Of a DNA stretch of 64,000 bases, positions 1 to 10,310 are shown piece by piece. The stretch is from Xylogone sp. PMI_703. Its lineage: Eukaryota; Ascomycota; Leotiomycetes. Location: positions 3,720,001-3,784,000 of the forward strand of contig JAJTUQ010000006.1 of NCBI GenBank assembly GCA_021399445.1, written 5' to 3'. A program made the position numbers and the translations under genes. The notes under the pieces are model-generated. The model was not told the DNA's origin. It saw only the letters and a list, made by a program, of their open reading frames with translations, and did no database searches. Position 1 is the stretch's first letter. Every line of letters begins with the position of its first letter.

Positions 1-590
1 GTGACCAGGTATTGTTCTTGATTATCACTGTCCAGGATAAGTTGGCCTTGCATATCAATCAGCGGCGTTGTGCTCATGGGAAGAGCGGCGGCTTCCTCGG
101 CGTTGAGAACCACCATGCCCACATTATACAACTTTTCCCAGAATGCATCCGTCTCGGTTCCCGGTACTCCAAGGTAAGGGTTGAAGGGGAGTGTGGGATC
201 GTTGGTGAATCCGCTTGGATCGAACTTCACGTCTTCGTACGCTATAAAGTTACGAACGTATGCTGCCATGATGATTAATTGCTGAGAAATAATCATTTGA
301 ATAGCTGAAGCGTTGTAAGGAGACTTACGTAGCTCAGACGGTAGTAAGATTGACTCCATACTAATGCTACCAGAACTATACTGATATGAAGAATGGCGGG
401 CTAGGAGGAGCCCTGCTAAAAGGAGGGTCACAAAGTGCAAGCATAGTATGTATGCCGTCGAAAGAGCGGACGCTATGGAGGTGCTGGTATTATTGCTTCG
501 AGCCCTGGTCTTGCCGGCAGTGCTGGGCAACCCGTCCACTTGTTCGTCTTGTGGCACCTGCGAATAAAATTTGCTGAACTTGCTAAACAT
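1..590 (-). CDS. DUF3328/UstYa-like oxidase, 3' part missing at window edge
   Basis: Two exons are visible, 590-329 and 262-1, joined over a 66-base GT-AG intron; the reading frame runs off the left edge. The start is the only ATG ahead of a clear membrane segment. Residues 1-40 are polar and cytosolic-looking, about 43-64 form one transmembrane helix, and the part after it would be lumenal. The segment YLGVPGTETDAFWEKL near residues 117-132 fits the conserved block of the DUF3328 family, which includes UstYa/UstYb. Known members oxidatively cyclise tyrosine-containing RiPP core peptides (ustiloxin, asperipin-2a, phomopsin) and use C-terminal HxxHC motifs; those would lie outside this window, so catalytic competence cannot be judged. 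The gene lies 445 bases downstream of the repeat-peptide gene on the same strand, which supports a joint role. The family call is strong; the substrate is inferred. Confidence 0.85.
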   Translation of the reverse strand, partial: MFSKFSKFYSQVPQDEQVDGLPSTAGKTRARSNNTSTSIASALSTAYILCLHFVTLLLAGLLLARHSSYQYSSGSISMESILLPSELRKSPYNASAIQMIISQQLIIMAAYVRNFIAYEDVKFDPSGFTNDPTLPFNPYLGVPGTETDAFWEKLYNVGMVVLNAEEAAALPMSTTPLIDMQGQLILDSDNQEQYLV

Positions 591-1035: not shown

Positions 1036-1425
1036 TTAATTCTTCTCAGAAGCCTGTTCTTCGTCTTTGCGGTACCTGCCAGGACGTGAGTAAGCCGCTA
1101 GAGAAGACGGATGTATAAAACTGACGCAACATAAGTCTGGCGCTTTTCATTCTCAGATGCATCTTTGTCCTTACGATAGCTGCTAACAATTCAGTAGGCT
1201 GCAAAAGGAGTGTGCAGGATATAATACTAACGCGACATATGTCTGACGTTTCTCATTCTGAGACGTCTCTACTCCCTCACGGTATCTGTCAAAAGATGAG
1301 TAGGCCATAAGGGAAGAAGAATACTATACTAACGCCACATATGTCTGACGTTTTTCTTGGGCAATGGGAGATGCGGCAACCATGCCAGCTAGGAGAGCGA
1401 GGATGCTGATATTGACGAACTTCAT
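1036..1425 (-). CDS. Candidate RiPP precursor with three QTYVAYR repeats
   Basis: Four exons are read: 1425-1334, 1285-1232, 1179-1126 and 1075-1036. The introns are 48, 52 and 50 bases, all GT-AG and all in phase 2. The predicted protein is 79 residues. Residues 1-19 are a signal peptide (hydrophobic, ending Val-Ala-Ala-Ser), then a short spacer and Lys-Arg at 25-26. Three repeat units follow; the first two are exactly 18 residues. Each unit starts QTYVAYR, has an acidic tail, and the first two end in Glu-Lys-Arg; the last ends at a TAA stop. Signal peptide plus Kex2-cut repeats with a tyrosine core is the layout of fungal dikaritin precursors such as UstA, and the neighbouring UstYa-like gene fits. 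The core here matches neither YAIG (ustiloxin) nor FYYTGY (asperipin-2a). The exons are too short to be found by plain ORF calling. Function is inferred from architecture and context. Confidence 0.75.
1076..1333 (-). repeat. Tandem exon-plus-intron duplication in the precursor gene
   Basis: About 104-106 bases are repeated: a 54-base coding exon plus a 48-52-base intron. The introns resemble each other, starting GTTAGTA or GTCAGTT and carrying a TACTCA/TACTGA-like branch site. The exons share the boundary QTYVA/Y. The pattern indicates duplication of whole exon-intron units. Confidence 0.7.
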
Positions 1426-6642: not shown

Positions 6643-8375
6643 ATGCTACACGGCGCTATGCCTGGCCTGTTATCGACACTGCTCCTGGTCGCGGGATCTG
6701 CCCACACCCTGGCAGACTCGGCAGCAGCGAGCAGCACAACTATTCACACACATAAATCTAGGTGCAGTGCTGGCTTCTTCAGTGGCATATTGCCCAAGGG
6801 TACGGCACTTGAGAAGGTCACCCACGTCTCTCAAGGCGACACTTTTGGAGAAGGTGCTGGAGATCTAGGGTACCCGATCCAACCAACCAATCTGCCAGCA
6901 TTATGTGCGGTCATAGTGAAAGTGACCAGTTCACCAGTGTCTTCTTATCGATTCGGACTAATGCTCCCTGATGATTGGAATCATCGGTTCCTAGTTGTTG
7001 GAAACGGCGGGTTTGCTGGAGGCATTAGCTGGCTCTCTATGGTAAGTCTCTGAGCGATCCAAATGACACAGCAAAGGGGGCGGCTCACTCATTCGTGCTT
7101 TATTAGGGGCCACGCACACATTACGGCTTTGCTACTTTATCAACTGATACTGGTCATAACTCGTCAGTTATAGACTTATCCTGGGGCCTGAACGCTCCAG
7201 AGCAGCAAATTGACTGGGGCTGGCGCAGTATACACGGCTCAACGAAATTTGGCAAGTCACTTACGGCGGCTTACTATGGCGAATCAGCCTCGTACTCATA
7301 TTACAGTGGCTGCTCAACCGGCGGGCGCCAGGGGCTCAAAGAGGTGCAGATATCTCCAGAGAGCTTTGATGGTGTTCTCGTTGGAGCGGCCGCTTGGGAT
7401 CCAGCAGCCCTCAATAATTATGTCACGCAGGTCGGGCTCTACGATATACCCGCCGGAGCACCTAACTTTGTCAATGCTACGTGGTTCCCCGTCATTGGCG
7501 AGGAAGTAATTCGGCAGTGCGATGGTGTTGATGGAGTGCTGGATGGCATTGTGAGTGCGCCTGAGCTGTGTCATTTTGACTTCAGTACGCTCCAATGTGG
7601 CACCTCCAAGAAGGGCTCTCCATGTTTGACTGAGACGCAGGTCAAGACAATCAAGAAGATCTATGCTGATTGGCATACGGAAGCGGGGGAATTTCTCTAC
7701 AAAGGCTATAGTCTCAGCTCGGAAGATATGTGGAACTCTTGGAACCTCATCGGATGGCCCGAGCCCACTTACTTTGGGGTAGGATACCAGCGCTACTGGC
7801 TGTACGATGACCCCAACTGGCCGTGGCAGGACTTCAATGACAGTTCGGTGGCCTATGCTAGAAAGAAAAATCCGGGACAGGCCACCGCGGCAGAGTACGA
7901 CGTTTCCGCTTTTAGGAATAGAGGAGGCAAGATGATAATGTATCATGGGGTTGCTGACGGGCTGGTGCCAACGAAGGGATCTGAGCTGTACTACAATCGT
8001 ACCAGACAGGCTATGGGCAAGAACATTGACAATTTCTTCCGTCTCTTCTTGATCCCCGGAATGCAGCACTGTGCCGGCACTGTCACCGACGCGCCGTGGT
8101 ATATCGCCACGGAAAACCAGCCTGATGTCCTGGCTAATGCTACCTGGTCGGTCCCAGGATTCAGAGATGCGGCTCATGATGCGTTGCTGGCTCTCATGCG
8201 GTGGACGGAGCATGGACATGCACCGGACCAGATTGTGGCTACAACATGGCAGCGCCCTTATGACCCGAGCACGGGAGTGCTGCGCCAGCGTCCACTGTGT
8301 CCATACCCGCAGTTGGCCAAATGGAACAAGCATGGAGATATTAATGCAGCATCCAGCTGGTATTGTGCGAAATAG
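6643..8375 (+). CDS. Secreted tannase/feruloyl esterase family protein
   Basis: Two exons, 6643-7041 and 7107-8375, join across a 65-base GTAAGT...TAG intron to give 555 residues, close to the usual length. An alternative start five codons later (6658) gives a cleaner signal peptide, with cleavage near residue 25. The tannase/feruloyl esterase family (PF07519) uses a CS-D-HC motif. Here it is seen as GCSTGGRQG with Cys202-Ser203, Asp417 in HGVADGLVP, and His454-Cys455 in GMQHC, numbering from 6643. A disulfide between the two cysteines links the catalytic Ser and His in known structures. Such enzymes cleave gallate or hydroxycinnamate esters of plant phenolics outside the cell. Whether tannin or feruloyl esters are preferred cannot be told from the sequence. 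Neighbours give no cluster context. A 376-codon open frame on the opposite strand is a shadow of this gene. Confidence 0.92.
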
Positions 8376-10310
8376 GCAAGTTCTGGCACTTGTGAAGTCG
8401 CCGGGTATAGGGTTGGTTGCATGTGCTGTATAGAGATTGAACATTCAGGAGGCGAGGATGGAAGTTAGGGTACAAATCAATTTTCATTTCATTTCCTAGA
8501 TATAATCTGCTACCTTGAAATCATAAATTAAATATGACGTTTCTCTTTTACCATGTGAGAAGGGTTAGCCAAAAGACGACAGTCAAATAAAAGATGCAAA
8601 ATACTGAGCACCACGCCGATCATCAATGAATTCGAGTTTTCTTAAACAAGGGAACATCTACATGAGACTTTACTCACACTACTGCATCTTTTACTGGAAC
8701 CTCTTTTCGAAAGCGAGAGTCATAGCGCGGGGACAAAATTGATTAACCAACATCTGGCCACGAAAGTGAATCAGACGTTGACTAGGACGAGCCTAATATG
8801 GAGCCAGACAGTATATCTTGCCGTTTCGTATCCTTCTTGGGCCAGGCATAACACGGGGATAACCGGTCGAATCGAGAAGGCGAGAGAGCGGTGGGGCTTT
8901 CTCATTGAAGAAGATCTCAATTCCCAGGAGTGGAGTGCTTTCGAAAGGTTACTGAAATAGGTAGATGAATGGTGAGGAAGGTGTGTGATGCACTACTTTG
9001 TATCTCGATATGATATGGAATCATGCGACGGAGACTTGTAGCATCGGGTCTAGCAAGAACGCTTCTGAACTCAGTTCGAACATGCAGACAAGAATGTCTC
9101 GATTAGTAGATGAGCAGGCCATGAGTTGTCCTTGGTGTTTGGTCGTGGTAAAAGTGGAATGTGACGTACGTTTTCAGTGTTTATTAACCAAGGTGTCCGG
9201 TAGAGTTATTAATTACTTGGCTCCCGCACACCCCGGCCCATCTCATCCTGACATGGCAGCTAGATATTAGTCGTTGTATGCTGAAGTGATGAATAGGTAG
9301 TGATCGACTGGACGGGGAATACGAAGTTATTGTAAGTTCATAGAGTTGTTGCCATCCCAGCAGTTTAAAGCCCCACAGGGGTACATATAAGCTTACGGAT
9401 ACGTTTTTGGTGAATGCTTATTCTTCATGGTAGAGGCTTGGCGGAGATTTAAGCCCCTTTCGGAGAAGATTAACACCCGAAAAGCTCCACAAAGGTTGAG
9501 GTCTATCGACCGATCTAACATCCTTCCTGATTGAAACAAGCCCAGGTACTGTAGTTCCTAGCTAAAGATTTATTGAGATGATACGCTTCATAATCTGGAA
9601 TCATTCACCAAGACATCCATAGCGAGCGTTCTTTTGACTAATTAATAACACCATAAAGCTACCCTCCCTTTCGGTTTAAGCAGACTAGAAGCACATTACT
9701 CAAAACCATATAGCACCCATGTATAGTATCTTTACTTACACCTTAAAAATTCCTCAAAACTACAGCCAAGGCACCAGCAATGCCCCGTGTTAGTAAGGAT
9801 GAGTAATACAGTTCTCTGAGACGTTAGCGATATTGAGCTACGTTATGTACGACGTCGCAACCGTATGCAACGTTTGAATAGAGCATCGATGATTGCAACA
9901 AGAGCACAAGCACAGTAATGTTTGTCTAAAAATACGACAATTATCTACGGAAGATCAATTTTTATCAAGATATAACAAGTTAGAATGAACTATACTCTTG
10001 TAAGATCAGTCCCACCATCAAGCATTATTAGTCCAGACCGAATAAGCACTAATTGGGCCCTTCAAGTCGTATAGCATAAAGAATTTGATTGATATTCAAT
10101 AGAGATTGTGTGCAAACAGAATTTTAAAACTAAGAATATCGAATAGCTTAAAGACGGAAACACAAAAATTTGCAAAATTCAGTGGCTGACTGACTTATCG
10201 GTCTTGTAGGTTCAGAGATGAGATATGCAACTATCTTCTAAAGAGCGAACTCGACACCGGCTGACTAAAGCTTATGCCCATCATTATATTCACTAAGACT
10301 GACACTAGGT
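8376..10310. other. Long gene-poor stretch
   Basis: I see no family motif or convincing intron-exon structure. Open frames of 73 codons (8739-8960) and 90 codons (8998-9270) on the plus strand lack good starts and recognisable domains. From about 9600 the sequence is rather AT-rich. No terminal repeats or transposase remnants were recognised. Confidence 0.4.

What the first reader, a model, noticed from the sequence alone, without database searches (positions are those of the whole stretch)
1036..1425. New Kex2-type repeat peptide next to a UstYa-like oxidase
The minus strand encodes a signal peptide and three QTYVAYR repeats separated by Lys-Arg, beside a DUF3328/UstYa-like gene. Known dikaritin precursors (UstA, AprA, PhomA) share this layout, but the core YVAY does not match ustiloxin, asperipin-2a or phomopsin. 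Two tyrosines per core would allow one or two Tyr-derived ether cross-links; that is inference. The exons (92, 54, 54 and 40 bases) escape plain ORF calling, so it may be unannotated.
Basis: partly seen in the sequence, partly recalled or inferred. Interest (0 to 1): 0.9.

Follow-up and report, generated by a model that had tools for sequence, protein, structure and literature searches.

The report
Fungal repeat-peptide precursor beside copper oxidases
A mould carries a small gene for a secreted protein that is probably cut into three copies of one short tyrosine-containing peptide, next to enzymes of a kind that tie such peptides into rings; the layout is well known in fungi, but this peptide has no known relative and every copy of it is split by an intron.

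Summary
The gene is already annotated, as 'hypothetical protein F5884DRAFT_806074' of Xylogone sp. PMI_703; the protein search found no other relative. No tyrosinase match lies on this contig, and no S41 peptidase or scored P450 is near. Between copies the core differs only synonymously. I read it as a Kex2-processed, UstYa-modified RiPP precursor, dikaritin-like, closest in its sparse tailoring to asperipin-2a. The kind is common: a survey counted 1,758 such pairings (PMC7329392), and 18 of this genome's 54 UstYa loci yielded three more. Unusual are the in-register intron splitting every core and the three-oxidase set without tyrosinase. The cross-link is inferred. New member of a known kind; interest 0.35, not 0.9.

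The parts
1036..1425 (-). precursor gene, start codon to stop codon, 4 exons, 79 aa, three QTYVAYR cores
1334..1425 (-). exon 1 (92 bases): hydrophobic leader, first KR, first core up to the split Ala codon
1286..1333 (-). intron 1 (48 bases), phase 2 in the Ala codon of core 1
1232..1285 (-). exon 2 (54 bases, symmetric): end of core 1, spacer EGVETSQNEKR, start of core 2
1180..1231 (-). intron 2 (52 bases), same position in core 2
1126..1179 (-). exon 3 (54 bases, symmetric): end of core 2, spacer KDKDASENEKR, start of core 3
1076..1125 (-). intron 3 (50 bases), same position in core 3
1036..1075 (-). exon 4 (40 bases): end of core 3, tail KDEEQASEKN and stop
1..590 (-). 5' part of UstYa-1 (whole frame C22:3719661-3720590, 310 aa read without splicing; the rest lies left of the window). 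UstYa-2 (C22:3718433-3719113, +) and the divergent UstYa-like gene (C22:3716820-3717584, -) lie wholly left of the window

Best explanation
The gene makes a RiPP precursor. The protein enters the secretory pathway and Kex2 cuts after each Lys-Arg, freeing two 18-residue pieces and one of 17, each beginning with Gln and carrying the core QTYVAYR followed by an acidic spacer. Two UstYa-type membrane oxidases and one divergent relative, all with the paired HxxHC copper site, act on the core, most likely making one or two oxidative cross-links from its two tyrosines; peptidases encoded elsewhere trim the spacer. Shown: the gene model, the repeats, the constraint on the core, the neighbouring enzyme genes with intact motifs, and a Kex2-type P-domain in the genome. 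Inferred: expression, secretion, cleavage, cross-linking, the final ends of the core and its biological role.
For: Exact gene model that equals a deposited protein; three KR-bounded cores unique in the genome; core copies differ by 3, 4 and 5 synonymous and 0 non-synonymous changes while spacers differ in protein sequence; two adjacent UstYa genes at 130.4 and 88.6 bits and a third protein with the same two HxxHC motifs whose profile aligns with UstYa over those motifs (E 2.2e-4, probability 44.7%); 29 of 38 matches to the family of the third protein lie within 10 kb of a UstYa match, 0.88 expected; one Kex2 P-domain match. Literature: the motif binds two coppers in CctR (PMC12435403, passages); KEP genes next to DUF3328 genes more often have Tyr in their repeats, 65.6% against 38.2% (PMC7329392, passages).
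Against: No transcript, no product, no second species with the precursor. No tyrosinase match on this contig, although ustiloxins and phomopsins need one. No solved structure or significant fold match for the enzymes. The third protein is below the Pfam cut-off (13.4 against 25 bits). UstYa-type enzymes also hydroxylate and halogenate (PMC12435403), so cross-linking is not assured.
Confidence: 0.65

Rival explanations
1. The repeats are released as unmodified linear peptides (a pheromone-like or other signal), and the UstYa genes next door serve something else.
For: Most Kex2-repeat genes have no DUF3328 neighbour (6,120 of 7,878; PMC7329392). No product is known here.
Against: In that survey all genes annotated as yeast alpha-factors and all but three of those annotated as fungal pheromones lack a DUF3328 neighbour; here two UstYa genes and a third relative adjoin the precursor. 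The cores lack Cys and Trp, which the pheromone motif as I recall it requires. That motif found nothing in the genome, so the true pheromone gene was not located and this rival is not closed.
Confidence: 0.13
2. The core is modified by the UstYa-type enzymes, but by hydroxylation, halogenation or another oxidation, not by a Tyr cross-link.
For: DUF3328 members do hydroxylation and halogenation as well as macrocyclisation (PMC12435403, passages). Three such proteins are present, so not all need be cyclases.
Against: Two tyrosines per core are kept in all three copies, as expected for Tyr-linked peptides.
Confidence: 0.18
3. The repeats and exons are a chance or decayed reading, not a gene.
For: Only a computed gene model supports it; no second species was found.
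Against: 0 of 100 simulated windows give such a family; change in the core is synonymous only; three introns with standard ends in register.
Confidence: 0.02

Closest known systems
Asperipin-2a pathway (AprA precursor, AprY oxidase), Aspergillus flavus (PMC6514808, passages)
   Same: Kex2-repeat precursor, UstYa-type oxidase, no tyrosinase among its four genes, short core with more than one Tyr.
   Different: Different core; one oxidase there, three UstYa-type proteins here; no counterpart of its transporter or isoflavone reductase identified beside this gene. An aldo/keto reductase (two Pfam-matched frames, C22:3710699-3711818) lies about 5 kb left of the third enzyme, beyond or beside a glutamate dehydrogenase; its link is unknown.
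Ustiloxin and phomopsin pathways (dikaritins; PMC7329392 and PMC6514808, passages)
   Same: Signal-like leader, repeated cores bounded by KR, at least two DUF3328 genes next to the precursor.
   Different: Different core; those pathways need a tyrosinase, and no tyrosinase match lies on this contig.
Epichloecyclins (GigA, Epichloe; PMC6514808 and PMC9233826, passages)
   Same: Secreted multi-core precursor with Kex2 sites and a Tyr involved in cyclisation.
   Different: Different repeat; no homology found here. Whether gigA has introns in its repeats could not be checked (paper not held).
Another Kex2-repeat gene of the same genome, C12:7721988-7722446 (L023)
   Same: Gln after KR, Val and Tyr at the same core positions (QVMVKYD against QTYVAYR), acidic spacer, UstYa and UstYa-like matches within 4 kb.
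   Different: Nine copies spaced 15-16 residues in one uninterrupted frame; similarity to this precursor is only E 0.05.

Membership tests
Kex2-processed repeat protein (KEP) | at least three similar fragments between Kex2 (Lys-Arg) sites (threshold of PMC6339444, passages) | tested here: met
   three cores after KR; none in 100 simulated windows
Kex2-processed repeat protein (KEP) | signal peptide | tested here: inconclusive
   hydropathy peak 2.01 at residues 3-21; no signal-peptide predictor at hand
Dikaritin | multi-core precursor with leader and repeated cores | tested here: met
Dikaritin | DUF3328 (UstYa) protein in the cluster, the class-defining enzyme in the newer definition (PMC12048977, passages) | tested here: met
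   two genes over the Pfam cut-off, 130.4 and 88.6 bits against 25
Dikaritin | tyrosinase in the cluster (older five-gene definition) | tested here: not met
   0 of 13 tyrosinase matches in the genome lie on contig C22
Dikaritin | methyltransferase in the cluster (older definition) | tested here: inconclusive
   none among 27 flanking frames scanned with Pfam; no genome-wide search made
Dikaritin | peptidase or transporter in the cluster (older definition) | tested here: inconclusive
   only S41 match on C22 is about 3.0 Mb away; a beta-lactamase-type hydrolase (PF00144) lies at C22:3697636-3699492; transporters not searched for, and several flanking frames have no Pfam match
Dikaritin | oxidative side-chain cyclisation of the core | not testable with these tools
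   needs LC-MS/MS
UstYa/DUF3328 (three neighbouring proteins) | paired HxxHC motifs (PMC12435403, passages) | tested here: met
   two motifs in each of the three
UstYa/DUF3328 (third protein, C22:3716820-3717584) | score over the Pfam cut-off | tested here: not met
   13.4 against 25 bits. Of five family members scanned, two (P0046 26.9, P0049 27.7) pass, two (P0038, P0043) score below, one (P0047) has no UstYa match
Fungal alpha-pheromone precursor | Cys- and Trp-containing pheromone core (motif recalled) | tested here: not met
   no Cys or Trp in the repeats

The most novel reading that the evidence does not exclude
A copper-oxidase-only RiPP pathway: three UstYa-type enzymes and no tyrosinase turn QTYVAY(R) into a new mono- or bicyclic Tyr-linked peptide. 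Its repeats multiply as whole exons: each core is split by an in-register phase-2 intron, so skipping a 54-base exon would remove exactly one core in frame, and retaining an intron would stop translation at that core. Core number and yield would then be set by splicing.
Probability: 0.3. Interest if true: 0.55.

Novelty: new member of a known kind. Interest (0 to 1): 0.35.

Why it matters
It adds one orphan core and a compact, testable gene set to a large known class. Its one-intron-per-core layout shows how mining that looks for uninterrupted repeats in open frames can miss such precursors. The divergent UstYa-like family, largely below the Pfam cut-off in the members scanned but strongly clustered with UstYa genes in this genome (29 of 38), is a practical handle for finding more such clusters.

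Tried and rejected
Considered and rejected: chance repeats; an alpha-pheromone gene (no Cys or Trp in the repeats; the pattern is a recalled motif and found nothing, so the real pheromone gene was not located); a complete ustiloxin- or phomopsin-type cluster (for P450 only 92 of 367 candidates were scored; the nearest scored one on C22, at 3571197-3572438, is nearly 150 kb from the precursor).

Led nowhere: fold searches of both predicted enzyme models in the PDB gave no match with E of 0.001 or less; sequence and profile searches of the PDB gave none or only chance-level matches; the tandem-repeat finder saw nothing, since the introns break the array. The precursor search considers only proteins of 0.55 to 1.75 times its length, and only 13 candidates came up, so a much longer or unpredicted relative in another fungus would be missed.

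Literature limits: a text search for the core and the locus prefix found 0 papers. A search for Kex2, repeat, intron, ustiloxin, core peptide and DUF3328 found 6 papers with at least five of the six terms; 'intron' occurs once in each of two of them. One passage speaks of intron-dense basidiomycete genes for amatoxins (PMC9233826), the other of amplifying intron-less KEP sequences from cDNA in Coprinopsis (PMC9769878), which implies that some KEP genes have introns but does not say where. The gigA and phomopsin papers are not held. So an intron in every repeat is not claimed to be without precedent.

Full report
Where it is. The window is C22:3720001-3784000 of a 50.1-Mb genome in 25 contigs. 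The precursor is identical to a protein deposited for Xylogone sp. PMI_703 on a contig of the same length as C22 (3,954,366 bases). Xylogone belongs to the Leotiomycetes; one paper calls this strain a mycoparasite (PMC11708051, passages).

The observation. On the minus strand, 1425 to 1036, four exons of 92, 54, 54 and 40 bases, separated by introns of 48, 52 and 50 bases, encode 79 residues: a hydrophobic start, then three times QTYVAYR after Lys-Arg, followed by EGVETSQNEKR, KDKDASENEKR and KDEEQASEKN. The KRQTYVA pattern occurs three times in the genome, all here, and never in the backward-read control. The family stands alone in the window, and 0 of 100 simulated windows give one. The gene is annotated, as a hypothetical protein.

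Selection and origin. Between copies, the 21-base core shows 3, 4 and 5 synonymous differences and none that changes the protein (pS 0.60, 0.80, 1.00; pN 0), while the spacers, compared without gaps, change in protein sequence (pN 0.28, 0.57, 0.50). This fits purifying selection on the core, on very few sites. The three introns sit at the same place, phase 2 of the Ala codon. Pairwise they are more alike than shuffled introns (3, 2 and 9 of 500 shuffles reach the observed score), which fits duplication of an exon-intron unit. Exons 2 and 3 are symmetric, so skipping one would drop one core in frame; each intron, if retained, brings an in-frame stop (frames). Whether either happens is unknown.

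The neighbours. Downstream on the same strand, 445 bases away, is UstYa-1 (C22:3719661-3720590, 310-aa frame, 130.4 bits to PF11807). Then, on the other strand, comes UstYa-2 (C22:3718433-3719113, 88.6 bits, covering profile positions 9-181 of 220, so its end probably lies in another exon), and then a third gene (C22:3716820-3717584, minus; deposited as 204-aa hypothetical F5884DRAFT_683019) with no Pfam match at 0.001 and 13.4 bits to UstYa, below the cut-off of 25. The UstYa-1 frame was read without splicing and may include an intron near residues 73-94, where the model is poor. All three proteins have two HxxHC motifs and a strongly hydrophobic stretch near the N-terminus.

The third protein. 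Of its 21 family hits, 3 carry a precomputed UstYa domain (P0046, P0048, P0049). Of five members I scanned, two pass the Pfam cut-off, two score below it and one has no UstYa match. Its profile aligns with that of UstYa-1 over the two motifs (E 2.2e-4, probability 44.7%). In both AlphaFold2 models (mean pLDDT 72.9 for UstYa-1, 86.5 for the third protein) a strand runs directly into the helix with the first motif, and the second motif lies on a following helix; the models were not superposed. In this genome 38 matches to the family were found with the 62%-identical paralogue P0043 as query; 29 of the 38 lie within 10 kb of a UstYa match, 0.88 expected from the share of the genome so covered, and 23 of 38 within 5 kb, 0.5 expected. 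Matches within one cluster are not independent. P0043 itself, at C22:3668327, is among the 9 without a UstYa match within 10 kb.

The surroundings. To the left of the third gene lies a glutamate dehydrogenase, then an aldo/keto reductase in two frames; to the right of the precursor come a BTB protein and a HET-domain frame. Of 27 flanking frames scanned with Pfam, reaching 27 kb into the window and about 25 kb beyond the third gene, none is named P450, methyltransferase, tyrosinase or peptidase; one, at C22:3697636-3699492, is a beta-lactamase-type hydrolase. Not every open frame was scanned. Genome-wide, 0 of 13 tyrosinase matches are on C22; the one S41 match of 5 on C22 is about 3.0 Mb away; the nearest scored P450 is nearly 150 kb away, though only 92 of 367 candidates were scored.

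How it most likely works. Kex2 (one P-domain match in the genome) releases three peptides that start with Gln. The UstYa-type enzymes oxidise the core, by analogy with asperipin-2a, where one such enzyme is essential for a peptide with two Tyr ether links (PMC6514808, passages). In CctR the HxxHC pair binds two coppers and the enzyme uses oxygen (PMC12435403, passages). Cross-linking here is inference.

How common it is. A survey of 1,461 strains counted 7,878 Kex2-repeat proteins, 1,758 of them with a DUF3328 gene nearby; 2,560 were stand-alone, without homologues (PMC7329392, passages). In this genome I read 18 of 54 merged UstYa loci; four hold a Kex2-repeat gene, this one included. The other three have repeats without introns. 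An orphan core next to UstYa genes is therefore expected.

Membership. It meets the repeat and Kex2-site criteria of a KEP (signal peptide only by hydropathy) and the DUF3328-based definition of dikaritins; it fails the older five-gene definition on tyrosinase (definitions from PMC12048977, passages). I file it as a KEP with UstYa-type partners that works like a dikaritin, and as a dikaritin only under the newer definition.

Against my reading. There is no transcript, no product and no second species with the precursor. The third enzyme's place in the UstYa family is weak by sequence score. Other DUF3328 reactions are possible.

Noticed in passing
L023 (C12:7721000-7730900), minus strand, C12:7721988-7722446: A second Kex2-repeat precursor: nine copies of QVMVKYD or QVMVKYE with acidic spacers in one uninterrupted frame, with a UstYa-like match at C12:7723823 and a UstYa match at C12:7725257.
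   Followed up: partly
L029 (C20:1609000-1618900), minus strand, about C20:1610580-1610833: A Kex2-repeat frame with seven copies of DEDGIRAGDF, no Tyr in the repeat, about 1.5 kb from a UstYa match.
   Followed up: partly
L031 (C20:6665000-6674900), plus strand, about 8200-8710: A Kex2-repeat frame with six copies of QSPDLG(Y/F)Y(V/T)YF between UstYa matches; some copies follow ER or AR instead of KR.
   Followed up: partly
window:1036-1425, L023, L031: Three of the four Kex2-repeat genes read in this genome have Gln right after Lys-Arg in at least some copies, which could become pyroglutamate and shield the N-terminus (inference).
   Followed up: no
G000, 38 places, e.g. C22:3716832 and C22:3668327: A divergent UstYa-like family with paired HxxHC motifs, largely unseen by Pfam in the members scanned; 29 of 38 copies lie within 10 kb of a UstYa match. 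A 62%-identical paralogue of the third enzyme lies about 48 kb left of it, without a UstYa match within 10 kb.
   Followed up: partly
C1:8095035-8109283 and C19:6465244-6470779: Two places with tyrosinase, UstYa and UstYa-like matches together, the set expected of ustiloxin- or phomopsin-type clusters; no precursor was looked for there.
   Followed up: no
window:11536-12102 and L035:2768-3421: Two frames with hydrophobic, signal-like starts look alike by eye near the N-terminus. The window frame has no Pfam match; the other was not scanned, and the two were not compared with a tool.
   Followed up: no
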